DNA of 64,000 nt from Echinostoma caproni. Its lineage: Eukaryota; Platyhelminthes; Trematoda; Plagiorchiida; Echinostomatidae. Shown in pieces: positions 5,179 to 63,149 of the stretch. Position 1 is the stretch's first letter, and each line of letters starts with the position of its first letter. The position numbers and the translations under genes are program-made. The notes under the pieces were generated by a model. That model saw only the letters and a program-made list of their open reading frames with translations, searched no databases and was not told where the DNA came from. The stretch spans positions 1-64,000 of the forward strand of contig UZAN01039578.1 of the NCBI GenBank assembly GCA_900618425.1. The letters are read 5' to 3'.

Positions 5179-6784
5179 GTCACGTGACAGGAACACCCGC
5201 ATTCATCAACTTGAACGTTAAACGTCGTACGGATGATCTACTTCTGGCTCATCACGATTTTGTGATTTTCCCGGCGCATGCATCCGAGCTCACTCTTCGT
5301 ACCAGTGAGAAATATGAGAAATTTGAGCTTAATTACACGTTTATCGACGTTGTAACCCAACTGGAGGAAGATCAAATTACATCCGGAGAGCCGTTTCTGC
5401 ACGTGACTATCACCGACTGTGGATTCAGTCGATCGTTTGGGCTTCAATTGAGCTCCAAAGATAACAAACGCGGTCGTGGAAAGCGGTTGCAACTTCATTC
5501 TCAGATGGCCGACGATATGTCTCTTGTTCGCGGCTCCACCATGGACAATCAACGTTGGGCCACTTATGCTCCATTGTTTATCATCTCTTCTTGTGTTGGA
5601 ACTACATATTTGTTAGTTTGTCTTGTGTATACCTTGATAAGACACTTCAGTTTCACAGACAGTAAATATACCGTGCATGCACGGGTTGTCAGCAGAGGGG
5701 AGCAGGGTGATTCAGTAACAGTTCACAAGATTCCTCTGGCCCCGCAATCATTTCGGTTCAACCGGGGGGGCGAACAACTGTATTCTTCCCGATCAGCCGC
5801 GGACGACGGTTTGTACTACGGTGAGGGTCAGTACGAGACAAATCAGTATAATCCTGCTGTGATTCGACTGAATTCCACGAACTGGCATCGACTACAGACA
5901 ACAGAGTCCAGGCCATGGGCTATTTACTCGACCAGATCCCGTTCAAATGCAATTCCAGTGCGCCGTGTTCTACTGTTCGCCCACTTAGCATTTCGTGTAT
6001 TTTATACTTTCCTATTTACTTTTAGTGTGGCTGTATCCCTTATCTTTAGTTTACAACCCGCAACACGTCCTAATGCTTCCGAATTGGTATTCCAGCGGAG
6101 ACGAATGCTTGGTCCGCTTCTTCGATTGCAAGCCGAATCTCGCTGGCTAGAATCGTTCGCGGAACAAGAGCTCAGACGTCAGCTTGACTATGTGGATCGA
6201 ATGAAAGTCGCTTGTCAGCATGCGGTCGGTGTGGAAATCACGGATGCTGTACGCGAAATGCGTCAACTGGTTCAAGATACGTTAGACAAATGGCACTATG
6301 ATGCCAAAGCAAATGACTATGATGAGGGTGGTAAACAACGACAAACGGAAGAATTAGGGAATGGAATCAGTGAATCACATATGTTGATCAATAAATATTT
6401 CGCTCAACAAAGACAATCGCTGGACAAGTATCGTGTCCAAACTGAGCAAGCATTTGACTATCGTGTAACCAATTTTTATCGAGCATACGCACAACTGTTG
6501 GATAACACATACAATTCGGGTTGGTTGAGGTATGTTCAGCGAATGCTCAATACCAGCCTGAAATCCGACTCGACGGTGCTGGAGCGTGACTCATTAGGGA
6601 TGAGCAGAGATTCGGCCTTGTTCGATGCATACGATCACACACGTTGGAGAGGCACGTTGCATTCTCACTACCTTATGGCTCAGCAAAACTCGGGGTTGGA
6701 CACAAAACACGTGACAATGATGACCTACATGGGTTTTCAGCAGGCGGAATTCGTGCACTTTTTGCCCCTACAGTTAAAGCAAGA
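5179..6784 (+). CDS. Exon 1 (of those visible) of a large five-pass membrane protein
   Basis: The open frame runs from an acceptor (CAG before 5179) to a GTGAGT donor at 6785. It starts in phase 1, so one base comes from a missing upstream exon, and it ends after two bases of a codon that exon 2 completes as Glu. It encodes residues 1-536. Residues 1-128 look extracellular, with an N-glycosylation site (NYT, about residue 52). Membrane segment 1 is at about 129-155 (APLFIISSCVGTTYLLVCLV), followed by a polar cytoplasmic loop of about 108 residues. Membrane segment 2 is at about 264-291. The first part of a large outside loop follows, dominated by charged, probably helical sequence, with NAS (299) and NTS (458) sites and an HFLP motif (527). 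No signal peptide is visible because the N-terminus is missing. The family is not recognised. The topology resembles prominin, but I see no cysteine-rich cytoplasmic junction, so that is only an analogy. The long open frame, correct phases and higher GC than the flanks make it very likely to be coding. Confidence 0.88.
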
Positions 6785-7714
6785 GTGAGTCACGTATCGA
6801 TTGTCTTTTATTATCGTGAAAATTTTTTTTGAATGAAACTTTTCAAGTTACCGTGTCCCGCTTGTACTGTCTGGGGCTGAGAAAAACTCCATCTTAAGTC
6901 TTCTACCTTAAATACACATATTTAAGTAGAATTTGTGTACATTTCATGTAGTGAGCTGTTATCACTAAATAGAGGTGACATTCTTTGCACAATGCTGTTT
7001 GTTGTTCGTATTGCTGAGGTAATATACCTGGTGTTTCGTTGGAAATTAGAATTGAAACGTTTCATCATCATTTGATGTACTTTTCTCATTATAATAATTT
7101 GTCACTGAGTAGTGTGGAGGGACGTGATTTTCACCGTTTGACGGCGTTTAATTCACTTTCTGTCTATAAAAGAGAAAATTAATATAATTGGTTTAAAGAT
7201 TTATCGTTTATCCATCAGTCTGGAGTCACTGCTGTCCTGTTTTAATGTGACAATATCCGTAGGGCAAACTTTTGATTGGTCGCTTCCCTCTTCCTGAAAA
7301 TCGTATCAATGTTTATTCAATAAAAGGAAAAGACAAGGAAAATAAATAAGAATATCCATTTTGTGTTCATTGGCCGATCCGTCTAACAGCAGATTTGAGT
7401 TACTCAGTGCGACAGCTGACCGAGTTGCCAGATGAATGCCAAACTCGGAGATATTCTCGTGCATATTTTGTGGGTATCTGAGATATATGACTTTATTATT
7501 ATAAATATTTGTGAATTAGGAGGAATGAGAGCGCATCGTATCTTTCGGTAGCCCATTTGCTTTCATCGAAATGAGCTGCAACTGTTCTCTTCATTTGGAA
7601 TGATGTAATGTTTTTTTCAGGCAATACATTCAATAATGTGAATAACTTGAGTTTCAATTGTATATTCCATTTACCCTTTGATTTCCGTTAAGGCTAATAA
7701 CCGAGTTGTGAGAA

Positions 7715-7895
7715 ACTAAAACAATCCACCAGCCACCAAATTCCGGAACAAAGAGTGGTTGATCACATTAAATCCCTACTGGGTTAGGCGACGTGGGATT
7801 GAACCGGACGACATGGCAGCTGCCTACCATCAAACTTTGGTAGTTGTAGTTGTGAAATTCAAACTTCAAATCCTAGGGTCCGAAGCGCTCCAGTG
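7715..7895 (-). repeat. Dispersed repeat, copy 1 (related to 50695-50940)
   Basis: Read on the minus strand, this contains a block beginning TTTGATGGTAGGCAGCT, followed by TGTCCGGTTCAAT and an ACGTCG/TCTAACC segment. The same order is found on the + strand near 50740-50800. It looks like an old interspersed repeat with a tRNA-like B-box (GGTTCAATCC). No coding capacity is seen. Ends are approximate. Confidence 0.6.
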
Positions 7896-9944
7896 AGAGT
7901 GACGTGAAACACTTGGCCAGCAACAACTTAGTTGTCATTTCGTAAATAATCACAAATCAATGCAAACGAATTGATCATTTTGTTCTATTTTCATGGTAAA
8001 TACGACATTCAAAATGTTTTGATGCCTTTATAGGTCTTACCGATTTCAATCATTTAGCAATCACAAACGTGTCACCCACATATCAGAGCCAAACTTTTGA
8101 GTAAAATCATGGTATATTTGTCTTTTTGAGTATCGGCATCATAGCTTCAGTACATACTTCAGAAATTAACAATTGGTCCCATGATTTCCCTGTTTACCGT
8201 GAAATTCAGAGCACCTTTGTAGGTATACGTTCCTCAGCTTCCAAATAGGTTTCGATTTTTGAATCTTCTGATATTAATTCCAGAATATATATATGAGTAG
8301 AGCTGAAATTGTAATTATCACTTTCAAAATGATGGGAACTCTGCAATATTCGTTTATGTTTGCCGTCAATCATTGTATCTAAATATAAATTTCTTTGAGA
8401 TTCAACAAAGTGAAAAATGTTGAACGTGTTCTTTGTTATCCCAATGGTGAATTTTGTGTCAATGAATGTTTGAAAAACAGTATAGAGCAGATTTTTCGTG
8501 TGTCTGTCGAGACCGGTTAACAGTGAATATTAGGACTTCACAACTTCAATATATTGCACAACAGCAAAACTGGAGGCTGAAATGATGAAATGGAGTACTT
8601 AAATTACATCTCGTTGGTGAGGTCGATTTAATCCAAACAGGTTCGCAGACGACAAACTCGGTGGTAAAGCGATGAGACCCACGCAAAAGATTAGCGTTTC
8701 TGATGTCTCATAGTCTGAAGTGGACAATCACACTGATTCTACTGTTCATTCGTGTGTTTTGTTTACCTTCTTTTTTATTTCCTCCTAGTTCAAGCATTGT
8801 GAAAGAAAATTCCCAAGATGTGCTCCAAAGTGTAAACATAGATTTTTGGAAAACTTGAGATTACATTCGAGAATTCTTCATTGGAAGAAACATATGTACA
8901 CTACTAGAATTCAATGTCTGTGTTAGTGACGTTAAAGATATATTAACTTGCGTATCTAGAAATTTGACTGATCCTGAATAAAATCACTTACATTTAATGG
9001 TATTCTAATTATGATTATTATTATCGATCGTGGAAATCACCTATTATATAACACATTGATTATCATTTAATGTTGATAATAATCTTATTGTATCCCCTTT
9101 GAAATCTAGAAGATTATATTTGAGTATGCATGAGATATATACTAAGATATGCTGAAAATTAACGTCGGATATACCCGACGCTTGAACATAAAAAGTTCAT
9201 AAAATCAAGTGCATGTGAAATTGAATGCGAAATCCTATTATTTTATCTAGTTTTATCGCCATTCACTGTAAGTAATGACATTGAATAAAACAGGTCAGTC
9301 GCATCTGTCTTGATACTTTATCAAACGGAATCAGGCAACGTGCTTTTTGGTATTCGAAGTGTATTGATTAGAACGGAGACAAACGAATTTTCTCATTGGA
9401 ATTCAACCAGACCAGAAGATTATCATATAGAAACGCATGGGAACAAAAGGCGAAATTTTCGATGAAATATCAACTTTGAAATTACTTTCCCACATTAGTT
9501 TAATACATATATAGGAGAACAAACGAGGCACATACAATCGTGATTAGTTCCAGCGTAGAATTTGAAAGGCTTTTCATTCTTCAAACCATGGGTCACCGTT
9601 CTCTATTTTTAAGTTTTCTCCACAACCAGTCGACTGTCAACCGGTGTACACCATGCAAACAATCATTGCAATTGAGGTACGGTGTTTTCTGAACACAGCA
9701 TGTGAAGCCACGGATGCACCGATTGTCCCCAAATTAAAGAGATGAAATAAATTCTCTTTTTTCATTACTAGTTGCAACCATTGTTTTGCTGCTAAATTTG
9801 TCGAAAGTGTACAATAAATCTTCACTTGTTTCATCCTGCGCGGTTCATGTTTTTGTTGTTGTTCATTCAGCCGGAAATTAAATTCAATCGATTCAGTTAA
9901 ACATATGGCATCTGTTGTTGTATTTTCAATCCACCCGTAAGTGC

Positions 9945-10002
9945 AGCACGCACGCACACACACACGCATACAAACGCACACACACGCACTCACACACATA
10001 CA
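9945..10002. repeat. (CA)n imperfect microsatellite
   Basis: A run of CACA with GC and CATA interruptions. It accounts for the VCVCMRVCV-like stretch in a minus-strand open frame at 9637-10092, which is probably not a gene. Confidence 0.85.
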
Positions 10003-10212
10003 GTCCATTATTTGCGCACCGCGTATTTTTTGTCCTTGCATTCTCCGCCGATCTAATTTAGACAACTCGCTTGAACATTTCCTCCGGCGCAAGTGACTTG
10101 CCTCTATTTCGTTTTACCTTTTTGTTCACTAACTGTCAAAAATGTTTGTGCGCATGAAATTAAATTTAAAATTTGTGGATGTTGTTTGTTCTTGGTCAGT
10201 ATATTGATGGTG

Positions 10213-10241
10213 ATCATCATCATCATCATCATCATCATCAC
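10213..10241. repeat. (CAT)n microsatellite
   Basis: About nine CAT units in a row. On the minus strand these read as a methionine run in a spurious frame. Confidence 0.9.
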
Positions 10242-13189: not shown

Positions 13190-13285
13190 TTGGAGCTGCC
13201 AGGATACGAACACCGGACATGACCTGTGCAAACAGAGAGCCATAAACCGATATCCTACTGTCGCCTGTTAAGCCGCCAGTGACTG
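13190..13285 (-). repeat. tRNA-like repeat fragment
   Basis: On the minus strand this has a B-box-like GTGTTCGTATCCTGG preceded by an A-box-like stretch (TCGGTTTATGGCTC) at roughly tRNA spacing. This fits a decayed tRNA-derived SINE rather than a functional tRNA, since I cannot fold a clean cloverleaf. Confidence 0.4.
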
Positions 13286-13699
13286 TCACTCCTGCTATTG
13301 CATCAAAAATTTGACACAAATGATTTGCTAAACTACCACTGCACAAGCAGAAGCTTTATCTGATTCCGCCGCTATTTTGTGCAAACTACAGGTCTAATCG
13401 AAACTGAAGCAACGGGTCCCTGTGAAACACTTGTCGGTTCGTATAGGCAACAGTATTTATACTGAAGTAAATTTTTTTCCAAATAATGACAAACAGGTCC
13501 TGGTGAGTCTTTATATACGTGACTTTTCTGATTCGTTTATACTCAGCAGATGAATTGGTTCAGAATGTAACGGATACTCCCATTTCGTCAGTAGCGGTTG
13601 ACCTAGACCATGATGAGTTAAGCGGTAACTGATGAAAATGGAACAGTTTTTGTTAACAAAAAATTACCATTGATAATAAGTAAGATGTACAGTTTGTGT

Positions 13700-13880
13700 A
13701 CACTAATGGTAGATTGGTCAGCCTTTGTTCTTTAGAACTTTTTCGAGTCTCTTCGGCATCTTTTGTGAATTTTAAAAGCGAATAATAAATGAACCAGATT
13801 GCTTAAATTAATAAATTTACTAACCTCTTATGAAACATGACACGGAGCGTTATCCTGGAGAACGATAACTTTTTCAAACG
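13700..13880 (-). pseudogene. Decayed Tc1/mariner-like transposase fragment (C-terminal part)
   Basis: On the minus strand, 13831-13866 reads VLQDNAPCHVS, matching the conserved second catalytic Asp region (QDNAPCH) of Tc1/mariner DDE transposases. Further along the same strand, 13706-13768 reads MPKRLEKVLKNKG followed by a stop, like the usual C-terminus of these enzymes (xMPKRLxxVIxxKG). Between them there are only about 20 codons, in shifted frames. The SPDLNPIE region with the third catalytic acidic residue is absent, which suggests a deletion. Upstream on the minus strand, frames are broken (stops near 13867-14000), though pieces such as YTVLADWDASVITKMLPEFHPK may be remnants. No terminal inverted repeats were recognised. 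It is a dead copy; the exact subfamily is not determined. Confidence 0.6.
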
Positions 13881-14424: not shown

Positions 14425-14590
14425 TTTATTCATCATACAAAGATATAATTTTCAGGAAGAGGAAGCGGCCAATCAAAGGCTGCCATTCAACACACAATGG
14501 AAAAAGTTAGGCGGTGGTGGTGGGATTCGAACACACATCCCCGAGGTCATAATTTGGTGACGTAACCCCCGGGCCACTGTAGAGTGCTTG
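14425..14590 (-). mobile_element. tRNA-derived SINE-like element, copy 1
   Basis: On the minus strand, the tRNA-like head has a TGGCCCGGGGGTTACG A-box region and a TGTTCGAATCCCACC B-box. These are followed by a unique body and a tail containing CTTCCTGAAAATT and an A/T-rich end. It shares almost the whole body with 52026-52200 and the head and tail with 25470-25635. The RNA polymerase III boxes and dispersal fit a SINE mobilised in trans by another retroelement. Confidence 0.7.
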
Positions 14591-19312: not shown

Positions 19313-20009
19313 ACTAAAACGGGTGTTTCTGTCGAATCAATATCGACCGCAAGTTTTACCTCCGGATTTGGTGAAAGCAACAGAACCTGTTGGTCTAACC
19401 GACCGCCAGGTGTACAGCACCGATGTTGGGGGTGCCCAAAAACCACCTGTCGGATCCACGGTGGAGCGCACATTTCTCAGCACGAATGACATGCATCACG
19501 TGGAAGTGTCGAGAGATTCCAGCCTGTTGGAAGCTGAATATACGTCCACCACCGAAAGCACAGAGTTGACATTTCGCCGTGGACGTTGGACGAATGAGAC
19601 CCTTTCCCCACGTATTCTCGGTCAAGTGCACGCGCTGTCCCTGACCGAATTGCGACTAGTCTTACTTGTGGTTGACTTTTTTATTATTATCTGTCGATTC
19701 TATCACACGTTTCTTAGTCTAAGAAATTTGTGGTTCGGACAGAAAATACATGTGGACGCGGCCAGTTTGTTGACAGTTCGATCCGGTGCAGAATCGGCCA
19801 CGGGGACATTGCTACATGCAAGCCCGAGCCTGGGAACGAACAATCGCAGAGGTCGACTTAGCCATACGACTGACAATGGGGATGGTGTGATACGATCTAG
19901 CAAGTCCACCGGTCTAGGCAGACATTCATCGTCCAAATTGGCTTTGTTACAAGAATTGTCCAAACAGAATAATCGCTATGAATGTACACATGTGGACCAG
20001 GAACAACAG
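19313..20009 (+). CDS. Exon 2 of the five-pass membrane protein
   Basis: The exon follows a T-rich tract and ACAG (19309-19312) and ends at CAACAG before GTGAGT (20010). Its first base completes the Glu codon split at the end of exon 1, and its end is phase 0. It encodes residues 537-768. The first ~110 residues finish the first large outside loop, with an NET glycosylation site (about 630). Membrane segment 3 is at about 649-667 (LVLLVVDFFIIICRFYHTFL). The rest is a Ser-, Arg- and Gly-rich cytoplasmic stretch (SSKSTGLGRHSSSK). No domain is recognised beyond the membrane segment. Splice signals and phase agreement on both sides strongly support it. Confidence 0.87.
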
Positions 20010-20414: not shown

Positions 20415-20429
20415 TTAATAGATAGATAA

Positions 20430-20491
<62 letters not shown>

Positions 20492-20733
20492 GGATGGATA
20501 TATCACTAGAAAGATAGATAGACAGATAGATAGATAGATAGATAGATAGACATATAGATAAATAGACAGATAGTTAGATAGATATTCAGATACATAGATA
20601 GATAGATAGATTTATAGCATAGATAGACAGAAATATGCATAGATATATAGATAGATAAACAATCGATGGACCATAGATAAATAGACAGATAGGTAGATCG
20701 ACAGATAGATAGGTAGATATATAGATAGACACG

Positions 20734-20789
<56 letters not shown>

Positions 20790-30913: not shown

Positions 30914-33437
30914 CGAGCGGAAATATTATTTGTGATCTGGATACAGCTGTTTTATCACAGAACCGGCCACAAATTGATAGCGGAAGATGAAAAGAGGCAG
31001 TGGTAATTTTTGGACGATAATCAAAAACAAAATGATGATGATACCTTCAGTATTGATTCAAAAGAAGTTGAAATTAACAGTTGGATCCACTTTTGTATAA
31101 ATTCAAGGAATTCAGCTGTCATATAACTCTGTAAATTGTGCTTTTCTTCTGAGTTCATTTTGTCTGCCATGATTATTCCAAAGGCTTTCAATGGTATGTG
31201 ATTTATCATGGTGATACATTTGTGTCCACACTTTATTTGAGGAGTTTTGCATGTAACTATGCCATAAATACTTTTCACTGTGATAAACGCGTATATCTGT
31301 TCTAACGAAAAAAAACATTACTGCCCATTATTTGTTGCAAACCTGTTACCCAAAATGATTAGGTTCGTAAAGAGTTATCAGTGGTTTCATTGAACCGGCA
31401 ACAAACTAAAAATTCTCTCTGTAATATCATCGTATAATCCAAATGGGTTTCAATTGTTCTTCTTTCCGTAATGGGAATTCCTGCAATCAGTTAGGAGCAC
31501 CTCTCTGGGTCAGTTTATATACTCTTTGTGAGCGACAGTCACTAAGTAAGAATGACTCTATTGAATGACTGAATTTACAGATACATGAGTCCCATACGTG
31601 AATATAAATCCAACTTTCATGCGAACACTTTGTCTCTGACCGAAGGAGACCGATAAACATACTCCCAACAGGAAGTTTTTAAACAGACGTGTCTCGGTAC
31701 AATTTAAACAACGAACATTTTTAACAATGGGTTAAATCAATGAGAATTGTTTGGATGATGGAAAACGATTTGTTCTGTATTTCAATCTGCTGCGTGTTAT
31801 TCGTCAGAAATAGTAATAATCCTAGGGAGTTTTCTAGGGCATTGAACACAGTGTAATCGAAATCCCTGGGAATAGAAGTGGACAGTTAACCGATGCCGCA
31901 AAGCGATGGGGACAATCATGGTTTGAATTAAATAATGTTTGGATGAAACATCAAGTGGTTCGATGACGATGTTATATGGAGGGGGCGTGTTGGGGTGGGG
32001 CGCATTGAGGTACCTGGTCTGGTTTGACATTCCATTGGCCGGCAATAATCGTCAGTGACAGATTTGACCACTGTCAGTTCTATTGTGGGATGAAGGCAAG
32101 AGATCGTAGTTCTACTAAGTTGAATAATTGTGGAAGCAAAAGCAAACTTCAAGGGAACGTAAAGGGCGCGCTTATGGTAGAACCAAAGTCAGCATTCTAT
32201 CACGTGCACTGCCAGGAAGACCATCTTAATTGGATGAGAAACAGATGGACCCCAGAGTATCTATGATTAACAAAAACCGACCCCGGTCGGCAGATGGCGT
32301 GTCATGCACAAGTCTTGATCGACTGAACGTTCCGGATGCAAAAACCAAACAGTCGTGGTTAGAACAAGACAATGACAATCGGTTGAACGCTTTGAATTCT
32401 TTCCGAATTCGGAATATTGGATACGTTAAAAAACTCACAAAAAGGTCAGACCGAGCGCTGACCTCCCATTCGGCCAGTGGTCTGAGATGAAACAGAGCGA
32501 TACAAACTTCCAAGACTTTCTTTTTCGGCCTGTAGTGATGTGCTCTCACTTTGGTTGGCAAACCATTAAGCCAAACAGTAAACGGGATATTGAATGAACA
32601 AACAGACAAAAAAGGCAGCAAAGGAACAAATCAGATTTATCATAAAGTGTGGAGAATCTGTGGTAACCTAGATTTGATGTGAAAACCAACTCGAATAACG
32701 CAAAGTTAGATAGAACCAAGGTGATTAGTGAATACTGGTAGCGTGAAAAGGTTTCATGCAAGTGCCCGATACGGACGTGCAAATTGATCCCCAGAAGGCG
32801 AGGAAGGACGGTTTGGAATCCCAGTGAACTGAACTTTCCTTACAATGATTGTAGTCAGTTGAATAACTGAAAGTAGTCTTCACCGGGCTACTGACGAATC
32901 AGCTCAGTGCAATCACCAGGATCGAACAGTCTCCAACCGGTGTGGTGTAAGTGATGCAGGTCTCTCTTTCGTGAATCACGTGATGAACCAAATCAGCCAT
33001 TAAGGTCATGACTCATAACAGTAGCTTAACCAAAGTTGATCATATCAAATGTATCGGTCAGTCAGAGTTAGTAACGGCAAAGGAACCTGTCGAGTTTGAA
33101 GATGGAAAGACGGATAGTGCGGCCGAAATTTGAAGGCCCTGCTAAGCGGTCTCTCGAACACTCATTGCTCACACCTAAGACCACCTACGTCTTCTATCAG
33201 TCAATGTCTAATGTTGGCGAAATGCTTTCCATAGCCCCAGAACCCCATCTACATTATGACGACTATTCACATTGATTGACCGATCGATAGCTCTAATGTT
33301 ATCTATCTCATGAATGGATGGTTCCGCACTACTGAACCATACCCATATCAACGCTGGATAAAGCAACCCGAACAAGTTTAAGAGAGGAAAGACATTACTT
33401 CCAGTTTTGGTTTGTTTTCAATTAGTTCTACGGAATG

Positions 33438-33605
33438 CGCAATGATAAGAAATTTTGAGGAAGTGGCAGGGGGCAGATCCGAATGCTGTCTTACAGTAAA
33501 TGGATAATCGGGAAAGTTAGGCGGGGGTGGGGGAATTATAACACGTCCTCCAGGGCGATAAGTTTGTGACCTCAACCACTTCACCACCACCAATAACACC
33601 TACAC
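33438..33605 (-). mobile_element. tRNA-derived SINE-like element, divergent copy 3
   Basis: Read on the minus strand it follows the order of the family: GGTGGTGG head, a GTCAC-AA-TTAT-CC stretch, a decayed B-box (GTTATAATTCCC), CCCCCGCCTAACTTT, then CACTTCCTCAAAATTTCT matching the CTTCCTGAAAATT tail. It is more decayed than the 14.5 and 52.1 kb copies. Confidence 0.6.
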
Positions 33606-36130: not shown

Positions 36131-36814
36131 AAAGAAGAAATCAAACGGACTTGCTATTTCGTAAGATAAAACACGATTGGCGCAAAACATGTTAACTAAT
36201 CATTTTCTTCTGCTTCCATAAGCCGCGCAGAACTTGATCAGTCCAAAATACTGCCTCTTTAGTGATCTTTTTGCAACAGCTGATGTTATCTGGATCATCA
36301 TCAATGTTGGACTGTTTGTGTTGATCCGCGGTAAACTGAATCCATTTAAGAGATGCAGACGTAATGACCATTTTGTCTTTCTTTTTAAAATTAAACTACC
36401 AAGTCGTAGAACTAACTAATCTCATGTTCACCACTTCTTCCTTTGTGTGCCAACAGTGATTTTAATTAGGCATTTCAATGTAAAAAATGCATGCTGACTA
36501 CTCATATTAAATTGCAGCAATGCTTAGACAGAAAACCACACATAAAGACAGACAGATCGGTAGAAAATGAGAAAAGTCAATCAGGACGGAGGCGGAAATG
36601 TCAAGATGCAAATATCCGGTGTAAAACCAAATAACTTGTCTCGTGTCCTCTAGTTAACACTGGCTGCTGAAGTGTTTTAACTAGTAGTACCGTGGGTGTG
36701 ATTAGTTCTGAGGTGAACTTTCTGTCTCTCTCTCATCCCATCCCATTGATATTTTATTATTAGAACTCAAACAATGTTCCGTTTTCTTTTCCGGAAAGAG
36801 AAGAACAAACACAG

Positions 36815-37860
36815 ACCATGAGCAACCAGCGTGTCCACAAGTTCATTGGATACTGTACGGGTTGCCGATGGTGCACACGGAAGGGGTACCCTTGCGACCG
36901 ATTCTGGATATGTGCAATTCACCGTACTATGCACTTGCAAAGTGGTTGGCTAAATTACTAGATTCCGTTAGAATTGCACTACCGAAACACAGCGTACGAG
37001 ACGCATTCATCTTTGTGAACAGCATTTGTGACTTAAACTTGATGGGTCGGATGATGCTTTCACTGGACGTTAGTTTGTTCCAATCAACGAAACCATGGAA
37101 TACCTGTGTAGTTATGTACAAAGTAAGGTCTTCCTTTGGAAGACCTAAAACAACTCCTTCATTTTTTCACATGCAACGTCCAATTCAAGTTCAACGACCA
37201 GATTTACCGGCATAAAGATGATGTGGTCATGGGATCACCTCTAGGACCATTTTTGTCGATGGCAAAACAAGAAAATAACCAACTCAAATCTTTCATTCAG
37301 CAATGTGTGTTGTATGCACGATATGTGGATGATATTCTGTGCGTGATTAATACAAAATCAGGAACAAAGGAGCTTTTGAGCAAGTTCAGTGCTGCTCATC
37401 AGAACATAAGATTCTCTTTAGAAATGGAAAACAATAACAAACTGGCATTTCTAGACGTCTGTCTGAGTCGTAGATCCGATGGCTCCGAGCAACTATTTGT
37501 GCAAAGGAATGCGGCTTGGAAGGACCAGTATATTCATTTTGCAGCTTTGTTCCGCTCAAAGTGAAGACAAGTTCGGGGCGCCTAGCAGACAGAGCAAGGA
37601 AAATTTGTAGTGAGGATACAATAGAAGAGCTCCGGTTCTTACGAATTATCTTCACACACAATGGTTATCCAGAACGACTGGTTAGCAAGATGATTCAGTG
37701 CAGTGAAAATACTGTGAAGAGGACCGAGGTCAGAAAGAAGGCGGTATACGCTGTCTTGCATTTCAAGGGGGATACATCAGCAGAGATGATACGAAGAAGA
37801 CTATTCGATGCTGTTTGTAAAACCTTCTACGTAGCAAAACTTAATGTTTTGTTCAGGTCC
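36815..37860 (+). pseudogene. Penelope-like reverse transcriptase, broken
   Basis: Three blocks in different frames make up the RT. Block 1 (about 36815-37120) has VPLRPILDMCNSPYYALAKW and a motif A remnant (LSLDVSLF). Block 2 (37136-37564) has motif B, GSPLGP (37232-37249), motif C, YVDD (37322-37333), and FLDVCLSR. Block 3 (about 37516-37860) has LRFLRIIFTHNGYP and the basic thumb-like region that follows. The order and spacing match Penelope-family RT. Frame changes near 37130 and 37540 rule out activity from this copy. YVDD and the FLD motif separate it from LINE RTs (usually YADD). Confidence 0.85.
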
Positions 37861-37904
37861 TAGCCAATTGTGTGTTCACGACTAAAAGACAAAATGCCGG
37901 ATTC

Positions 37905-41616: not shown

Positions 41617-42231
41617 GCTGACCTGATGGCCGATCAAGAAGTCAGCGAGTTGGATCCGACTTCGGAAAAGACCACACGAGATAAACCCTCAGATATGAGT
41701 GTCCAAGCCCAACCACTACACAGCAATATGCGATCTCTGTTTGCAGCCTACCAATGCTTTCCTACCAATCCGCATATTGTATTTCGAACAGAGCCGCTTC
41801 CCCTGGAAGCCGCATTGGCCCTTCCACCACCTCCATCACTCGGACCGGAACAGAATGTGGGCTGCCTATTGGGTATTCGTGTCACATGCTGTCGTCAATC
41901 CCACTACCTGTGTGCAGTAGTTGGTATTACCGTAGTCTTGGCTCTGTTCGGCCTGTTAATATTACAGGAACAAAGGGTTCTTGTGCAACCGACCAATGTC
42001 GATCACCGTGTGTGGCGTGAGCGAACTACAAATCAGGTCTCCAAAACCGTCGGTCAGACTGCTACGCTCAGATTGTCTTTGCAGTTGTCCGCCGCACAAT
42101 TTCACTATGAGAATATTATTGAAGAACAAGCCAAACGACTCAATGGGGAGTGGTTAATGTGGACAAAAAGCAAAGAATTGTCCATGCGGCGTCGTTTGCT
42201 GAGTTACACCTCCAGGTTCAAGCATGATTTT
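41617..42231 (+). CDS. Exon 3 of the five-pass membrane protein
   Basis: The exon follows TTTTAG and ends at GATTTT before GTAAGT (42232). Both ends are phase 0 and it encodes residues 769-973. Residues 769-864 finish the second cytoplasmic loop, with a Pro-rich segment (ALPPPPSLGPEQ) and a Cys pair (VTCCRQSHYLC) just before the membrane. Membrane segment 4 is at about 865-885 (YLCAVVGITVVLALFGLLIL). The second large outside loop starts there, with helical charged sequence (ENIIEEQAKRLNGEWLMW). An ATG at 41626 is not the start, because the frame is open back to the acceptor. No family domain is recognised. Confidence 0.87.
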
Positions 42232-44138: not shown

Positions 44139-47100
44139 CACAAAGGCCACTCCATCCCTAACAGCTCTGTTGAATATGGTTCGTACACGTAGTTTCTGTG
44201 GCCACGTTTAAACTGTTTTCCTCGTCTCGGGCACAAATGATAAACGAATCGTTGTGAACCGTAAACAGAACAGAAAGATCTCTGAAATAATAACCAGGAT
44301 GATGAGTTCGTTCAAACCCTCGTGGTACATCTCCTATTATTTTATTGAGTAAATAATCTAACTACGTAAACCCACACAATTTGAGCCATTCGAATTTTTC
44401 GTCCGTTAGAAGAAGTGGAAAAGCGGGCGGGTCTGGGGATAACGGAATTTACACTAGATGTTTCTGGAGACTGTTTAGCAACGATACTCTATGTGATGTG
44501 TAAGTTTCAACAAAGCCGTCTGTTATTTCATCTTTTTCTATGTAACTACCTCATGTTATCATCGCTGATGGTGACTACGAAACCGCTAATGTTTTTCGGA
44601 TCAAACAAGCAAACAAAATCTCTGTCACATGTCTGACGGCAAATCTGTTTACCCATTTCGAAAGTGTCCGTGTTCTGGTTTCATTAAAGTAGCCGTGTTC
44701 AGCCATGTGAAAAAGCAAATACTACTCTTGTTTTACACGTAATCCCACTCTGTCCCTCTAGGCTTCTTCACCACTCATATCCTTTTGTGCAAACACTGCT
44801 GGAGTTTGAGGAGCATGCCTGCCCTAGTATCCTGATCTCTAACTGTACAAACCCTTAAAATCGTCCCTTTCATTTTGTCGTACAACTGACTGATATTCGT
44901 TTTGATTTAGGCTGACCCCTGTCAGTCTGTCGGTAGTTCTTTGTTCTCGACAGCCATGGGCTGTCTGTCCTACTGCTATATGGTATCTAACTACCCATCC
45001 ATCTATCTGCGCATCTACATTCATCTGTCAGACGATCTCCGTTCATATCTCTGCAATCACCAGCACGACAGAAGGCGATCGTTACTCGATCAGTCTGTCA
45101 GTCAACCAATCTTCTAACCAGTCCGTAGGCGAAGCAGCCAATGGCGTACTGTATGAACATAGAGTATTGTGAAGGCGTGGTTGTGTTTACAGGCAGTCAT
45201 TACGGGTATACAGCCAGTGAGTGAGAGAGAAAGATAAGGGATGTAAATTTACCCGTCAGTTGCATCATTTATTCTTCGACGCACATGAGCGCAGATGACA
45301 TTTTCAACTAAATATTACGACATTTCAGGACTGCCTTAGAAATACCCAGGGGATAAGATTCATTGGTGTTTAGATTACTCTAAAGAAACAGCTAATCTGG
45401 TTTGCCCTGTACTTATCCCAATAAAGGGTTTTTCGTCTTACACATATGGATTTAGGAGAGTTCGTATAACGGTCCGCAAGCAGTTGCCTGATTTCACGTA
45501 CGCGTAAAACCTTGGTGCTTATGAGGGCACAAATGTTGTTTATATGCAGCTGAGAGGGTCGATATGGATGTAGCGGTATATATGTGGATGGATGAATGGG
45601 TGAACTTAGGGATGAAAGGATGCCTGTCTCGATTGACCGATAAATAGAAGGTTTAATGAATGCTAGTTTTTATAATCCCCGTATAACACGGATTGAAGCA
45701 TTCTCCAAAAAGTTCACGACTTCAAGGAAAATTTGCTAACAGTTAGATCGTCACTACGATCTTCGGTCCCAAGACATACGGACTTTGATATCCCTAGTTT
45801 TTTCTACAGAACTCAATGAACTAAAACTGTCGTTTGTGCATTAATTTGAATTGTCAACACCGGTTTCTGTGGAATTCAATTTCATCCATGGACAATGCAC
45901 ATGCCTTTATACTCTGCTTTGTCAACTTAGAGAACAGCCAAATAGCTCCGATATTTTCACATATTATCAACTAATCAACTTAAAGAGAAAATTTGGACTC
46001 TGCCGTTTCTCATATAATCTATCTGTTCGGCAGATGAATTGATGCATTTCACCGCACAAATAATTTAATTTGTATTCCGCTCGAATTGGCTGGAACTGCT
46101 GCTTTGGTTTGTGTTGATCTCATTGACTCATATGGATAACTGTCCTTGCGATATGGTTGCATTGTTTCCCTATGAACTGGAAAAAATATCTTAACGGCCT
46201 TTCGATTTCAGTTGGATTGTGATTTCACATACTGACGCTTAACTTGTAATAAAATACAGAGTCATATTCATGTTTAACTTACAACTATCTTGTGAATTGT
46301 CTCACATCTGTTGTGTGATCTCCGATCGGGTTCAGTTCATTAGATTGGTGCAACATTTTGTCTGATTTACATGGCAGATAAAAGCGAAATTGCATTCAGT
46401 GTTATTCAGAATAGCACTCAGTTTTCGCAGAGGCTCGTTTACTTGTAACCATCATAAAAACTGCAAGGTTTTGCGCTGAGTTCTCCGGAATCAGTTAATA
46501 AACTTGTCATGCATAGGCACATGCACACACAACTCGTACGAACACACGCAGATACCCGTGGGGAGACTTTGATCGATCGCCCAAAATGAAAGTTCGAACA
46601 GACTGGTGGGCATGGATCACTCGGGGTGGGGACGGTAAAGTACACACGAACAACAAACAAAAATGAAACTCCGGGAAAGGGCAATCAGCTAGGCTAGACA
46701 GTTTTATGCCTGAAGGCGTAACACTGTGAAAACGTAAACAGCACACTGGATCTGTGTGTTCTGTTCATATATGAGCGAAACCTATAAATGCCAGGTTCCC
46801 CTATGAAAAGTCGGTTGGTATGTTTGCATGTGTGTGGAACGAAATACTCACTGATGCGAGAGGGCAGTCAGAAATATCCTTTCACATGATATGCGTTCTC
46901 TACAGTGTACATCAGCAAACCACCGAAACTCGTGGAGATTGGCGTTCGCTCGAAATCCACTCTGCTCTCCAACCGGGACGGTAAAACCCGGATATGAGTT
47001 GAGAGGCAACGAATGTGGATTGCTTTCCCTATCATTAATCATACCACGTCGAGATGCCGACTGACGGACAGGGAGGTTTGGAGTTGTGTGTGGGGGGGGG

Positions 47101-52025: not shown

Positions 52026-52200
52026 TTATTTAATTTCCTTTTATTGAATATGCAACGGTACAATTTTCAGGAAGGGGGAAGCGGCCAATCGAAGGACTGC
52101 CATTCAACACACAATGGAAAAAATCAGGCGGTGGTGGTGGGATTTGAATACATCCCCGAGGTGATAATTTGGTGACGTTACCACCGGGCCACCACCGCCT
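52026..52200 (-). mobile_element. tRNA-derived SINE-like element, copy 4
   Basis: On the minus strand the tRNA-like head starts AGGCGGTGGTGGCCCGGTGG and ends with CCACCACCACCGCCTGA, so its ends could pair like an acceptor stem. The B-box has decayed to ATTCAAATCCC. The body (CCATTGTGTGTTGAATGGCAG) and tail (CCTTCCTGAAAATTGT) match the 14.5 kb copy closely. It is the best copy for building a family consensus. Confidence 0.7.
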
Positions 52201-53387: not shown

Positions 53388-53440
53388 CACCCGGACATCC
53401 ATCCTGCAGATATCCATCCATCCGTCCATCCATCTGTGCG
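53388..53440. repeat. (CCAT)n degenerate simple repeat
   Basis: Repeated CATCCATC and CGTCCATC units. No coding signal. Confidence 0.8.
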
Positions 53441-56400: not shown

Positions 56401-57743
56401 TCGTATATCGGAAACTCGTCACTGGCTGACAAAATAAACAAACTCAAAATGTTATTTAAATTTAATGTAACCCAGATGATTCTATGGTTTTGCTTTAATA
56501 TTAAGAAAAAAACCTATCTGCTTGGCAGATTGTTTCACAATATATCACTCCACAAAGCTAAAGGAAACAATTAACCAAAGTATTTCAAAGAAAAACAGAG
56601 CAACTATGGAATGCAATCTGCGATATGTTAGTGGAACATGGTGAGTACAAGTTTGACTAATTCTCTCTCTCTTCGACGATGGTATCCACAAAAACAGTGT
56701 ACGTGTTCTTTGTCCACGTTGTCCTCGAGGTCGCTTGAGAGTGTCCGATATTTCAGCGAGGATCGACATAAAATGAACACGCTTACTACAAATTCCATTC
56801 CAAGGTCATGTTTTCGTCGACCACTTACCTACTTGCTTGCTTGCCACCGAACTATAATAAGTATGATTTGATACAGCCTATAAATCCGCTATAGCTCCTC
56901 ACACACGCATGCACAAACTTTGGTCAATGTATCTCTACCATACGTTTAGACCCTAGAGATTCAAAATCTTCGGACGTTGGAAGAATCAGGAAAAGTAAAA
57001 AAACATGGTTATTTAAAGTTAACTGTTAGTCAAGTACAATTTTTATGAACACGTTTTATGTGATACATGGGCTAGAGAGAAACACCGTCGACCAAATAAT
57101 GAATTGTTATATATAAGTACAAAAAAGTAAACTGATCGCGTAATAGCTACTGACCAGATGATTGAGAACGGTCTCGTTCATAATAATTTTATGAAATTAC
57201 GCTATGTTGTTCTTTCCATGAAACCAGCTGCGGTAAACAGAATTGTGTTTATTGCATTGCGACTGATTTGTGGGGCTGTTTGTGACCTGTTTTATGCCCA
57301 TGTAATCGATACTTACTAAAGACACTTTAGTCAAACAGGAGGCAGGCGAAAAATCCCTTATCAGGAAAACATCTCCCGAACTTTTAGGCTACTGGGTGAA
57401 TGTGGATGGCATGGGCTTGGGTTAGAAGACCGGTGGTGCGTTGTCTCAGATTAGATCAGCCAGACATGGAGTGATATTTATGTTGTAAATATCAGCAATT
57501 GGATGCGAACTAGTGAAATCGTGGCTCGGCCTACCAAGATGCTGTTTCTCGAAACACTCGATGCGATAACACAGATGTGGAGTTAAAACTATGTTGAGCG
57601 ACTATTTCCAACCCGAGTTGGTACGAGTATAAAAATGCCAGCTACTAATGGTCGGATCCACAAAATTCATGTTAATAATGAATCCCGGAATTCTGGATCG
57701 TTTTACTCAACAGGCACACTATCTTCTCTTTTGATCGATTTAG

Positions 57744-57978
57744 TCGTTCTTCGATCGGCAAATCAAGGCTGAGAGTGAATTGATCGCCGCGGCTACAGCA
57801 CGTTTAACGAAGGATGCCACCGGCAAACCCGATCGTTCCTTGCCCAGAACAAACAGCTCTGCGGAACTGACATCGACGACCAGGTTGAATTCTGAATTGC
57901 TGTTTCGGCAACAAATTTGTCATTTTCTTCCCGTTGTCCCAGTACGTATGCCCAACACTGCTCAACAAGAAATCAAAA
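57744..57978 (+). CDS. Exon 4 of the five-pass membrane protein
   Basis: The exon starts TCGTTCTTCGATCGG after TTTAG (57743) in phase 0. It ends after AAA A before GTAAGT (57979), leaving one base of a Ser codon that exon 5 completes. It encodes residues 974-1051, all in the second large outside loop. It shows a charged helix (DRQIKAESELIAAATARL), an NSS glycosylation site (about 1010) and an FRQQICHFLP segment (about 1027-1036) resembling FQQAEFVHFLP in the first outside loop. The frame stays open for 25 codons past the donor, but the GTAAGT and the phase match with exon 5 decide the end. Confidence 0.8.
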
Positions 57979-60900
57979 GTAAGTGGGGTATTCCTTCTCC
58001 GCGAATCGTGAATGATTTTCATGAACCATATTCTGCCCGTTTACTGATGTCCTAATAGAGCTGTGTCAGGATGTACAGCTGACAGGTCGTTCATTTAACA
58101 AGCGGAGAAAGGCAGAGTTCGGATCAACGGATCGCCATTAGCTAGTTATTAACATGGATTGCAGAATGGACCAATGTACTGATCTGTTTTTTCTGTCGAC
58201 AGTAAAGTTGAGGTTTAAAATCTGCAAGCTATTGTGAATACCACTTGTTTGTTTAGGAATACTATTTTGAAGCTTTATTAGGCCAATAGTTCAATTTACA
58301 GCACATTCCGTTTTCGTACGGTGGCCGTTGCTATCCGTACGTCACCAGTTCCAGTCCCACCACCAACAAATCTGCCCGTTTCTTTTTTTCTAGTCATCTC
58401 CTGATCGGCCACAACTTTCTCTTTTCTTAAACAGTTGATTACGCAATTCTGTTTGAGGAGAAGAAATAATAAATGTAAAACAAATAATAAACATATATAT
58501 ATTTAATTAATAAATAAATTTCAATTTATGAATAATAAATTACATAAATAAATATTGAACATTAAATGTCAAGTGATTCCAACCAATTAGTTCATGTCGA
58601 TCTCTAAACTGATAAGCACCTATGGCATTATGACAGCTTAACTTGTCTATCTTTAAAAGTATGGGAATGCTTCATATTAATTTTGCAAATTATAAAGTTG
58701 GGATTCGGGCCCCGTAGCGGCCATGTTATTCAAACTAGACTTGTTACCTAATTCGCGGTCATCAGAAACCAATCGAGAAGAAAGAAGTAAAGGAAGCAAA
58801 TTCTGTCGGAAACATCTTTTCACTCGTTTTAAGCGATAGACTTACTGAGTTACCCGATAAGGAGCAACTGTCACATGTTTATTCTTGTTTGGGATTCGTC
58901 AGCTCTGCGTAAATTTGATGTTCCTTTTTGGACTCTCGTTGCAAGTCTTCCGGGTTGGGGGTCAATTTCTTAACCCCTGAGTAACACGATCAACAGCAAA
59001 TACCTCAAGCGAACAGTCAGTTTAATCCAAGTCAAGTCACAAATCGCTTTATTCATCCCAATGGATGGAATTTTTGCGCGGAGCAGAATAAAACAATTCT
59101 AATTCCATTTGCGTTAAAGTACATTTAATGTATGGTAAATAAAAAAACTCGCAAGGAGTTAAACCCCCAAGCACATCACGTCCAAGCTCGGCACAATGAC
59201 CAGTTTCTCTGAATTAATTCCACGTGGACCAGTAAACATAAGTCTAACTTAGCCTGTTCATTCACTCAACGTTTTGCCTGCTAACCAGTTAGCTCAGGAG
59301 TAAGGGTTTTGAGCCCCAACCTGAAATTTTACGTTTAAAACCCCAATAGGAACACAGAAAATTGGATCAAGCACACAGACGAGGAAAAGGGAATATACCT
59401 GTCTCAGCATCCGGATTGGACAAGATGGACATCACAAGTGTTAACACTAATCTGCCTGTGAACTAATTAATCAACAGAGATTGTTATTCTCCACTTGGTA
59501 CGTCCAGGGTACAGGGACTGAGATGACTTTCTGTCACAGGACAGATAGTAACAGAATGTGTATACAAAAAGCGTGAAAAACTCAATGTGAAATTCTTTCA
59601 GCTACGTTCAATTAGTTCAAACTTAGGAGTATGAGACAGCATTGTTCGTGAACAAAATAAGTAACAATTGCAGACTTCAAAATTTATACGGAATACTGGA
59701 CTCCGAGCTCAGAGTGGGATGTAAAATATTCATAAATGCCTGAGGTATTTCAAATATTGTTCACTGGTGATTCGCATGGAAGTAAAGTATGTTTCATATA
59801 CCACAATACTGTCCGTAAAATGAAAAATTGCCATATAATTGTTGTTACTCTTGGTTGAAGATGATCGTTTACGTGCCATCGTCGATTTCCAAAGTTTCCA
59901 CATTGGGACGGCACCAGTAAATGAAAACTGGATTATTCGCTGGATACAAAATTTGTTTATCTGATTAATCTACTTTACTCATTTACTCGGCAGTGTTTTA
60001 TGTTGACAGTTATCTCGGGTTTTCAAGTTTGTTTACCATCACATCAGCCTTATCAAGTTAATTCTTCACCGAACCAATTTCACCATTGATTTTCGCAGAT
60101 CAAAATAATCAGTACGTTTATCCGAATCGGTACTTTCTGTCTACATCAGACGTATAACAAAGCCCTCCCTCAGAAATCCAAAACTTTCGGTTAATGTGTC
60201 TGAAAACATCAAGTTTTATCCTCATGATGCAAAGTTTATTTAGATGAATTAGGGAACAAGGGTCTGTATTTGATAATCTTGTTAATCAACTCTCGATATC
60301 TGTTAAATTTGAGCACTCAGCTGAAAACAAACAGAGAACCCGCTTAGACTACCTACGCGATAGTCCGAATCAAGGGAACAAGTTTGCTGCAGTTCAAATA
60401 AAACACATAGTGAATTGTTCGATGAATTACCGAATCATCTGTCAACTGATTCGAGTGACGCTCAAACACAGGTGTTCATCAGGTTCTGCATCTTATGCGG
60501 ACCAAGTAAGACTCGGTCCAAATTACTGCATCTAGGAGACAAGTTGTGTGGGTAACATAGACATTACCATTTATCTCAACCTCGTTTTTAGCGATACTCA
60601 GCGATAGGGGGAATCTCACTTTTGGAAATATATTGCTCCTTAATATGTGCCCAGCGGAACAACATTTATACTAAGGGTTCATCGTACAATAACCAAAGAA
60701 ACTTGGAGAAATCAGTGGCCTCGATTAGAGAAAAAAACAGTACTAATTACGCCTAGAAAGACTGTTTTCAATCTCCATTGCCACATGATGCATAAAGTAA
60801 TAGTCCAAATAGTAAGATAGTATATCAATTACGAATTAGAACAGCAAAATTTCGTATCTTTTAACACAATATGTCAAGGTTATCGACGGAATTGGCTGTG

Positions 60901-61715
60901 TTGTAATCACACTCGTGCTGCGCTGGACAAAGAAACCAGTAGTGGAACATAACGAGATATTGTGTGAGTTTCCGGGGACATAAACCACGCCAGTGGTGTT
61001 TGTTGAAAGTCTCAGTTGGAATATCGTTGACTCTTGGTCTCCGTCCTCAGTCAAGGAAAAATGATGATGATCAATCTATGTGCACTCAGGGCAACAGTGG
61101 ATATTCCTCGTGAATTGATCCGGTTAACTCCCAACAAGACGGGGACGTGATGCAGTTTTACTCGCTGACTTCCTATAATTTCATTGATTTCTTGATAGAT
61201 GAATCAAATGAATAGCTTCTCAAAAACGGCTCTCCACACATTTAATAATTCATTCCGGCCATAGACTATTCAAGTATTTGCAATTTATGGTATATATCAT
61301 TATTATTATGGGATATATTTCCATTCCCATTTCAAATTAAATGGATAGACCTAAGAAATGAAAAATACAAAAGGGAGGAAACTAAACCTACTTACACTTC
61401 TTCATCGACAGAAATAAAATAAACGAGCTCTGCTTATTAATAAAACCCCTGAATGGGTATTCGATATGTGGGATTATTTCATCCGTAGACACCTGGTGTT
61501 CAACAACACTGTTTCGGCACTTCCATTCAGATTCAGCGAGATTGGCTTTTGCAAAAATAGAAACCGTCTGTTTGTTTATGCAGTAAGGTTGTCGTAAATT
61601 CATTTGACTATTCCAATTGTTTTGTTCAAGTAATGCTGAGCATTGGTCTCTTATGATCCAGCAGATTCCACTTCGACAAACGGTAACAATGTTCACCCTC
61701 GTTGTTCTACTATAA

Positions 61716-61747
61716 ACGCCACCACCCCACCCCACCCCACCCCACCC
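61716..61747. repeat. (CCCCA)n tandem repeat
   Basis: About five CCCCA units. The minus strand is correspondingly G-rich (GGGGT repeats), a composition that can form G-quadruplexes. Confidence 0.85.
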
Positions 61748-62040
61748 CTAAATACCTGATATGCAATGCATTCCCACACTCACCGGGTTCACGCACAAAC
61801 ACTTTACCGCACAGATCAGTGGAATTTATCTCGGCTAAATGGAAGGGTAGTAGCATGCAGAAGACTTATAAGGCCGATCCGGTTATTCTCAATCTACTGT
61901 TTTTAGAGTGCACTGATTCCATCCACGAACTGAGTATACAACAGTGATAATGACTACTGTGTTCTGTTAAGTCCAACGTTTACGGCTTCCTGGTAACATG
62001 AACAGGGAATGGAATTATGTCTCGTCACTGGCAGCATGAG

Positions 62041-62135
62041 CCTCGTTAGCCTAACGACTAGGATAGTTGTCCTTTACGACAATGGCAAATCATTCACCAA
62101 ACATCCCATTGGGACAATCTAGGGTTCAAAATCGA
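62041..62135 (+). repeat. tRNA-like repeat fragment
   Basis: TAGCCTAACGACTAGGATAG resembles an A-box region, and AGGGTTCAAAATCG (about 62120-62133) a B-box with an extra base. The spacing is longer than in a true tRNA, so this is more likely a decayed SINE or tRNA relic than a gene. Confidence 0.35.
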
Positions 62136-62400
62136 GTGTTTCTTTGAATTATTAAACATCATTTATCACTCCATCGTTTGCCTTCTATACCATTAATCCG
62201 TTCCACTTAAAATCACATTGCCCCGGAAACTGTTCTGCTTAAGTTAGGAGGGTAATCTCACGATGTCTAACTAGCGTGAAAGTCATTACTTAAGTAGTAA
62301 ACTATTCAGTGATTTTATCTGGAATTATTCGACTAGTGTCATACTAAACTTGTAGTATCCTTATTTGGAAAATTCATTCCTTTCCTTTTGGTTTCTGTAG

Positions 62401-63149
62401 GTCCTACACGATTTAGTAACGAGGTTGACTACAAGAAAATGAGCGTGCAAAATCTCCTATGGACTGCTCTGATCAGCCGTGCTGTGGACTTTGACTGGAG
62501 TAGTCTTGAACAAGCCCGACAGCTCAGTGTGACTGCTCTGTTGGTGGCAATCGGAATGCTCGGTTGCGTTGGTATTGTGGACATTTGTGGTTGGATGGTG
62601 CAACTGCGTTACCTCAACCCACTGTACAAAACCGCCCGATCCGGTGAGGCTAGTCATACATCTAGGAGTGAGTTGCAGTCCGGTTGTTCGAATCTAATCC
62701 CTGTGGATCCGGACCACATAGTTCTAGTGTCACCCCAACCGCCACCAATTATTCCTTATCCTGAAGAAGAAGAACAAAACGGTGACCAACAACGTCTCCC
62801 AGTAAGACCGCCTGCATCACCCACGGCACAAACACATTCATCATTGTTAGGACTTGATTCCCCACTAGCCGGTCCAAAACGGACCAGTCTGAAGACTAGC
62901 TGGACGCAGCAGCAGCAGCAGCAGCATCACCACAACCAACAGCAGCAACAACAACCGCAGTTACCCCTGACCGCTTTCTACGTGGATCCCAATTTGGTCC
63001 TAACATCGAATACCATCCATGGTCTTCCACTTGCCGTTTCCTCTCAGTCCGTCCCAATCTACATTGCCCACACACCAGGGTCTCCTATCGTGATTGCCCC
63101 AACATCTGGAATGAGCCCAACCCAAACCCGTACGACACAATCCACATGA
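62401..63149 (+). CDS. Last coding exon of the five-pass membrane protein
   Basis: The exon starts GTCCTACACG after CTGTAG. Its first two bases complete the Ser codon begun in exon 4. It ends at the stop codon TGA (63147-63149) and encodes residues 1053-1300. After a short outside stretch, membrane segment 5 is at about 1094-1118 (TALLVAIGMLGCVGIVDICG). A long cytoplasmic tail follows with acidic (PEEEEQNG), Pro/Ser-rich and poly-Gln/His segments (about 1222-1239). The tail looks disordered and could carry protein-binding or sorting signals. The TTG upstream at 62388 is not a start because it lies in the intron. Confidence 0.87.

What the first reader, a model, noticed from the sequence alone, without database searches (positions are those of the whole stretch)
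5179..63149. Five phase-matched exons encode an unrecognised 1300-residue, five-pass membrane protein
The exon ends agree in phase at all four junctions (split Glu, phase 0, phase 0, split Ser) and give one open frame to a stop codon. Five hydrophobic segments occur at about 129-155, 264-291, 649-667, 865-885 and 1094-1118. Five N-glycosylation motifs (52, 299, 458, 630, 1010) all fall on the side predicted to be outside; one more, near 232, falls in the first cytoplasmic loop. The layout (outside N-terminus, two big outside loops, inside tail) is like prominin, but I recognise no family signature. It may be a lineage-specific or strongly diverged membrane-organising protein.
Basis: partly seen in the sequence, partly recalled or inferred. 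Interest (0 to 1): 0.75.

Follow-up and report, generated by a model that had tools for sequence, protein, structure and literature searches.

The report
Fluke-only five-pass membrane protein gene
The five exons are real and encode most of a large surface-type membrane protein that our searches found only in flukes; it is laid out like prominin but matched no known protein family, and its function is unknown.

Summary
Observation confirmed. The five exons (5179-6784, 19313-20009, 41617-42231, 57744-57978, 62401-63149, + strand) have AG/GT ends, join in phase and encode 1299 residues plus stop. A deposited Echinostoma caproni 'unnamed protein product' is 100% identical over this length; relatives occur in Fasciola, Paragonimus, Clonorchis and schistosomatids at 28-64% identity. 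The five hydrophobic segments recur in 10 of 10 aligned proteins that reach the C-end (E. caproni plus nine).
Corrections: this is probably the C-terminal part of a longer protein. Five relatives have 312-716 more N-terminal residues. The deposited first exon (3949-3994) has no counterpart in relatives, and no other upstream exon was found in the window.
No family recognised by Pfam or PDB sequence search. It fails two working criteria for prominins, and flukes have separately annotated prominins. Most striking, TM2 is invariant in 23 of 24 columns over 11 aligned proteins, while the whole protein is about 31% identical to schistosomes.
Best reading: a trematode-restricted, N-out/C-in five-pass surface glycoprotein, perhaps a membrane organiser or receptor. 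Function is inferred, not shown.

The parts
5179..6784 (+). Exon 1 of the finding (an internal exon of the gene): end of the N-terminal ectodomain (predicted beta-sandwich), TM1, first cytoplasmic loop, near-invariant TM2, helical part of extracellular loop 1; residues 1-534
19313..20009 (+). Exon 2: rest of extracellular loop 1, TM3, most of cytoplasmic loop 2; residues 535-767
41617..42231 (+). Exon 3: end of cytoplasmic loop 2 with conserved C850/C858/C859, TM4, first part of extracellular loop 2; residues 768-972
57744..57978 (+). Exon 4: extracellular loop 2 with conserved Cys1031 inside a 12-residue invariant run (1025-1036); residues 973-1050
62401..63149 (+). Exon 5: end of extracellular loop 2, TM5, cytoplasmic tail with conserved [SA]PQPxP[ILV]IPxP and PLT[AT][FL]Y motifs, stop TGA at 63147-63149
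5958..6059 (+). TM2 (about residues 260-293): 23 of 24 columns (269-292) invariant in 11 aligned proteins, the most conserved stretch
   Evidence: coordinates computed from residue numbers with codon 1 at 5181
3949..3994 (+). First exon of the deposited E. caproni model (MSFKRKRTSDMKDGG); probably mis-predicted, no counterpart in the aligned relatives

Best explanation
SHOWN: the exons belong to a real gene of Echinostoma caproni conserved in other trematodes, spanning at least about 58 kb (5179-63149); its true 5' exons were not found in the window. It looks single-copy (one match per species apart from two Paragonimus westermani assemblies), which is an inference. INFERRED WITH GOOD SUPPORT: the product is a five-pass N-out/C-in surface-type glycoprotein with an N-terminal ectodomain, a juxtamembrane beta-sandwich, two largely helical extracellular loops and cysteine-bearing and proline-rich cytoplasmic parts. 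INFERRED, WEAKER: it works as a surface membrane organiser or receptor. The N-terminal head makes outside contacts; the two helical loops form one extracellular bundle, perhaps locked by a disulphide between the lone invariant cysteines 345 and 1031; the near-invariant TM2 makes a sequence-specific contact inside the membrane (self-association, a partner subunit, or a lipid or sterol); the conserved cytoplasmic cysteines may be acylated; the conserved proline-rich tail recruits cytoplasmic adaptors. The comparison with prominin and tweety is one of layout, not of shown descent.
For: Join and frame. Deposited identical protein and relatives in trematodes only, within the searches made. Five hydrophobic segments in 10 of 10 aligned proteins that reach the C-end, E. 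caproni included. Sequon N457 in 11 of 11, N457 and S459 invariant in the 15 rows of A4, placing loop 1 outside. Cys345 in 11 of 11 and Cys1031 in 10 of 10; Cys759, 850, 858 and 859 in 11 of 11. TM2 invariant in 23 of 24 columns; longest invariant run 19 (269-287), next 12 (1025-1036, around Cys1031), then 6. Helical loop 1 and N-terminal strands in both models; beta-sandwich matches. Tail motif [SA]PQPxP[ILV]IPxP and PLT[AT][FL]Y in 10 of 10 aligned proteins that have a tail.
Against: No transcript, localisation or function data. Both structure models are of low confidence (mean pLDDT 37.0 and 44.7). Lys/Arg at the membrane flanks sum to 11 inside against 8 outside (my sum): inconclusive. Partly conserved sequons also occur in assigned cytoplasmic loops (position 195 in 5 of 11, 802 in 5 of 11), all or nearly all in schistosomatids. 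The disulphide, acylation and adaptor steps rest on conservation alone. Restriction to flukes rests on word-based searches in which only about 8000 candidates were scored.
Confidence: 0.55

Rival explanations
1. A strongly diverged prominin or tweety orthologue that acts by bending or organising the plasma membrane.
For: Same 2+2+1 layout and helical extracellular loops; conserved cytoplasmic cysteines beside a TM, as in prominin-1 but at another TM.
Against: No Prominin or Tweety family among the Pfam matches of 15 members at E<=5 or of the family consensus at E<=10. Intracellular loops about 102 and 183 residues and second extracellular loop about 195, against <25 and >300 in the selection used by PMC11405016 (the same paper elsewhere gives about 280 for prominin extracellular domains). 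Five relatives carry 312-716 extra N-terminal residues. Fluke prominins are annotated separately: FGIG_00004, CSKR_100671, Smp_179660 (PMC9904461), whereas the relatives here are FGIG_01666 and CSKR_200527.
Confidence: 0.12
2. A surface receptor or adhesion protein in which the N-terminal head binds a ligand and the five-pass part with its proline-rich tail transmits the signal; membrane shaping plays no role. (Overlaps with the receptor half of the best explanation.)
For: Long N-terminal ectodomain with cysteines and up to 11 sequons in relatives; conserved tail motifs; predicted beta-sandwich before TM1.
Against: No recognised ligand-binding or signalling domain; the strongest conservation is in TM2 and the helical loops, not in the head.
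Confidence: 0.25
3. A channel, transporter or auxiliary subunit, with TM2 lining a path or docking on a partner.
For: One TM far more conserved than the rest, with several Ser/Thr/Tyr residues in it.
Against: Only five TMs; no charged residue in TM2 outward of R272; no Pfam channel or transporter match. The UniRef label 'PHM7_cyt' on the deposited entry (OSCA/TMEM63 type, recalled) was not reproduced by Pfam scans.
Confidence: 0.15
4. Gene-prediction artefact or pseudogene: unrelated frames joined by chance.
For: No transcript data were available here; the deposited model's first exon is doubtful; two of the four junctions lie in poorly conserved sequence.
Against: Open frames longer than in random sequence; Fasciola aligns to each of the five exons at 54-71% identity; two junctions conserved across nearly all aligned proteins.
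Confidence: 0.02

Closest known systems
Prominin (CD133) family
   Same: Five membrane passes in a 2+2+1 pattern, N-out/C-in, glycosylated helical extracellular loops, cytoplasmic cysteines beside a TM, cytoplasmic C-terminal tail
   Different: No sequence match; intracellular loops about 102 and 183 residues instead of under 25; second extracellular loop about 195; long extra N-terminal ectodomain in five relatives; cysteine cluster before TM4, not at TM1; flukes have their own annotated prominins
Tweety homologues (TTYH)
   Same: Five passes, N-out/C-in, extracellular domain with conserved disulphides and glycans (PMC8361169 passages)
   Different: No sequence match; TTYH extracellular domains are about 120 residues (PMC11405016); no long intracellular loops or large N-terminal head known to me for TTYH (recalled)
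OSCA/TMEM63 (the PHM7_cyt label on the deposited E. caproni entry)
   Same: Only the database label
   Different: No PHM7_cyt match in the scans here; five hydrophobic segments instead of the eleven recalled for OSCA

Membership tests
Prominin (PF05478, accession recalled) | Sequence homology to the family profile | tested here: not met
   Not among the Pfam matches of 15 scanned members (E<=5) nor of the family consensus (E<=10); HMMER filters drop most matches above about 0.1
Prominin (PF05478, accession recalled) | Five TMs in a 2+2+1 pattern | tested here: met
   Hydropathy in 10 of 10 aligned proteins that reach the C-end; the 11th, P0011, is truncated and shows the first four; four further relatives (P0009, P0017-P0019) were not scanned
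Prominin (PF05478, accession recalled) | Two intracellular loops under 25 residues (PMC11405016 passages) | tested here: not met
   About 102 and 183 residues in E. caproni
Prominin (PF05478, accession recalled) | Extracellular loops over 300 residues (PMC11405016 passages; the same paper also gives about 280) | tested here: not met
   Loop 1 about 340, loop 2 about 195 in E. caproni
Prominin (PF05478, accession recalled) | Cysteine cluster at the TM1/first intracellular loop boundary (prominin-1; PMC10967083 passage) | tested here: not met
   The conserved cluster lies before TM4 (C850, C858, C859); near TM1 one column has Cys in 5 of 11
Prominin (PF05478, accession recalled) | Fold of the TM and extracellular bundle | tested here: inconclusive
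   Models of low confidence; fold searches tested mainly the N-terminal domain
Tweety (PF04906, accession recalled) | Sequence homology to the family profile | tested here: not met
   Not among the matches
Tweety (PF04906, accession recalled) | TTYH fold with hydrophobic extracellular cavity | tested here: inconclusive
   Low-confidence models
OSCA/TMEM63 | PHM7_cyt domain | tested here: not met
   Not among the matches for the E. caproni protein or the 15 members
Immunoglobulin-like beta-sandwich superfold (N-terminal juxtamembrane domain only) | Two-sheet beta-sandwich fold | tested here: inconclusive

The most novel reading that the evidence does not exclude
This is a gene of a fluke-only class of five-pass surface proteins that arose independently of prominin and tweety, in which a nearly frozen second membrane helix is the working part (a specific lipid, sterol or partner contact) while much of the outside loops and head diverges, as expected of a parasite surface organiser.
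Probability: 0.3. Interest if true: 0.6.

Novelty: new variant of a known kind. Interest (0 to 1): 0.42.

Why it matters
A conserved family found in our searches only in flukes, with one nearly unchanging membrane helix, is a clean object for asking how fluke surfaces are organised, and it could be tested by gene silencing in schistosomes. It would also show whether a prominin-like five-pass layout evolved more than once. It is not a new mechanism as it stands: nothing about its function is shown.

Tried and rejected
Prominin/tweety membership: rejected on loop lengths, absence of profile match and separate annotated fluke prominins. The OSCA label of the deposited entry: not reproduced. Internal duplication of the two TM-plus-loop halves: no support (hhalign E 0.41; the N-terminal part against the second half E 0.12). 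Upstream exons inside the window: none convincing by tblastn (the output of four of 15 query proteins was printed; the best stray N-terminal match was 28 residues at 33118-33198, E 1.6) or by profiles of three N-terminal stretches (best E 0.15, at 44906, downstream of exon 3); the positive control, the next stretch, was found at E 7e-24. Non-coding RNA: no Rfam match at gathering scores and no tRNA. PDB sequence search with the profile: no match at E<=5; the exon 1 search gave one weak match, a chemosensory protein at E 0.03, taken as chance. Weak Pfam matches at E 0.14-0.43 for single exons, 0.019-0.77 for one or two of 15 members and 0.19-0.21 for the consensus were taken as chance; those shown with a cut-off are below it. 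Fold searches did not list prominin or tweety among the rows shown; the models are poor, so this says nothing either way. A first count of invariant runs treated truncated proteins as changed and gave 6 as the second-longest run; recounted with truncated ends set aside it is 12. Literature: searches of the held library for trematode+prominin, PHM7_cyt+Schistosoma, five transmembrane+flatworm, prominin+tweety, E. caproni genome, trematode-specific membrane protein, six locus tags, prominin+S. mansoni, tweety+Schistosoma and pentaspan plus fluke terms listed no paper whose title or abstract start describes this protein; the library lacks most subscription journals, the S. mansoni identifier of the gene was not known to me and not searched, and held 4,225 papers of which 10 were listed. 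Papers: passages read of PMC11405016, PMC8361169, PMC10967083, PMC9904461, PMC6344059 and PMC5818524; others were seen only as search listings.

Full report
What was checked. The window was read in all frames and the exon ends inspected base by base. The introns are about 12.5, 21.6, 15.5 and 4.4 kb.

Chance. The four longest stop-to-stop frames of the whole window (550, 270, 262, 223 aa) hold four of these exons; in 20 Markov-1 random windows the longest was 204 aa. The fourth exon (235 bases) is supported by alignment of relatives (60% identity to Fasciola).

Identity and relatives. A protein search found a deposited Echinostoma caproni 'unnamed protein product' (P0005, 1315 aa), 100% identical over the whole query, so the window is from E. 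caproni. The other 12 of 13 matches are from Fasciola gigantica (64%), Paragonimus (39-40%), Clonorchis sinensis (39%) and Schistosoma, Heterobilharzia and Trichobilharzia (28-32%). A profile search returned 15 proteins: the same 13, Paragonimus kellicotti (41%), and one from an unnamed source (65%). Echinostoma, Trichobilharzia and Paragonimus were looked up and are class Trematoda; for the other genera this is recalled. Both searches scored only about 8000 candidates sharing exact words, so absence elsewhere is suggestive, not proven.

The protein is longer than the finding. The exon at 5179 begins inside a glycine codon, and that glycine is nearly invariant in relatives. Five of the ten aligned relatives continue upstream for 312-716 residues (Fasciola, Heterobilharzia, three Schistosoma); the other five have 0-92, and two of those (Clonorchis, S. 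japonicum) are labelled partial. The deposited E. caproni model starts instead with a 46-base exon at 3949-3994 with no counterpart in the alignment. No upstream exon was found in the window by tblastn or by profiles with a working positive control, so the real 5' exons probably lie outside it. The upstream schistosome part (P0014, residues 1-715) matched only itself and three schistosomatid relatives at E<=1; Fasciola was not returned there.

Topology. Five hydrophobic segments occur in 10 of 10 aligned proteins that reach the C-end (E. caproni and nine relatives); Clonorchis, truncated, has the first four. Segment lengths between them in E. caproni are about 127 (N-terminal part seen), 102, 340, 183, 195 and 177 (tail). 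The best evidence for orientation is one sequon, N457, present in 11 of 11 aligned proteins, its N and S invariant in the 15 rows of a second alignment. Evidence that does not help: Lys/Arg at the flanks sum to 11 on the assigned inside and 8 outside (my sum), and schistosomatid relatives carry several sequons in loops assigned to the cytoplasm. No topology predictor was available.

Conservation pattern. Over the 11 aligned proteins, 23 of 24 columns of TM2 (269-292) are invariant, with a run of 19; with truncated ends set aside the next runs are 12 (1025-1036, around Cys1031, 10 proteins) and 6 (333-338); the best 24-column stretch outside TM2 has 18 (from 329). E. caproni and S. rodhaini are 81% identical in TM2 and 12-52% in the other segments. 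One cysteine in each extracellular loop is invariant (C345 in 11 of 11, C1031 in 10 of 10), as are C759, C850, C858 and C859 in cytoplasmic loop 2 (11 of 11), C80 in the N-terminal domain (10 of 10) and C1106 in TM5 (10 of 10). Motifs [SA]PQPxP[ILV]IPxP and PLT[AT][FL]Y recur in the tail of 10 of 10 aligned proteins that have one. These features suggest, but do not show, a loop-to-loop disulphide, acylation and an adaptor-binding tail.

Family. No Pfam family reached significance for single exons, the joined protein, five relatives, the 15 members or the family consensus; NCBIfam gave nothing for the exons; no PDB sequence matched the profile at E<=5. The label 'PHM7_cyt domain-containing' attached to the E. 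caproni entry was not reproduced.

Comparison with prominin. PMC11405016 (passages) selected prominins as five-TM proteins in a 2+2+1 pattern with extracellular loops over 300 and intracellular loops under 25 residues (elsewhere it gives about 280 for prominin extracellular domains). This protein has the pattern but fails both loop limits. In prominin-1 a cysteine cluster lies at the boundary of TM1 and the first intracellular loop (PMC10967083, passage); here it lies before TM4. A table in PMC9904461 (passage) lists fluke prominins under other locus tags (FGIG_00004, CSKR_100671, Smp_179660), while the relatives here are FGIG_01666 and CSKR_200527; other studies name prominins in S. mansoni and Echinococcus vesicles (passages). 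So it is laid out like prominin and might work like it, but is not shown to be one.

Judgement. The gene and its splicing pattern are well supported; restriction to flukes holds within the data searched; the N-out five-pass layout is probable; the membrane-organiser and receptor readings are inferences. The finding is a sound annotation of a conserved gene of unknown function, not a new mechanism.

Noticed in passing
37127-37561 (+), with neighbouring frames 36712-37863: Reverse transcriptase-like frame in the intron between exons 2 and 3 (Pfam RVT_1, E 2.4e-5, below the curated cut-off); overlapping frames suggest a decayed retroelement, Penelope-like by recall.
   Followed up: partly
2713-3025 and 20418-20789: Long tetranucleotide arrays, (ATAC)n and (ATAG)n, giving spurious long open frames such as YIHTYIHT.
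   Followed up: no
14475-14535, 33485-33545, 52092-52152; inverted pair 7263-7330 / 52034-52101: Dispersed repeat copies within the introns (66% and 90% identity to the reference copy; inverted arms 82% complementary).
   Followed up: no
3949-3994: First exon of the deposited E. caproni gene model appears mis-predicted; it has no counterpart in the aligned relatives.
   Followed up: yes
5985-6056 (residues 269-292): Extreme conservation of one membrane helix; without relatives' DNA it could not be tested whether the nucleotides are constrained beyond the protein.
   Followed up: partly
residues 1025-1036, exon 4 (57744-57978): Second-longest invariant run (12 residues, LFRQQICHFLPV) around the conserved cysteine of extracellular loop 2; extracellular loop 1 ends with a similar-looking VHFLPLQL. 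The resemblance was seen by eye only; hhalign found no duplication.
   Followed up: partly
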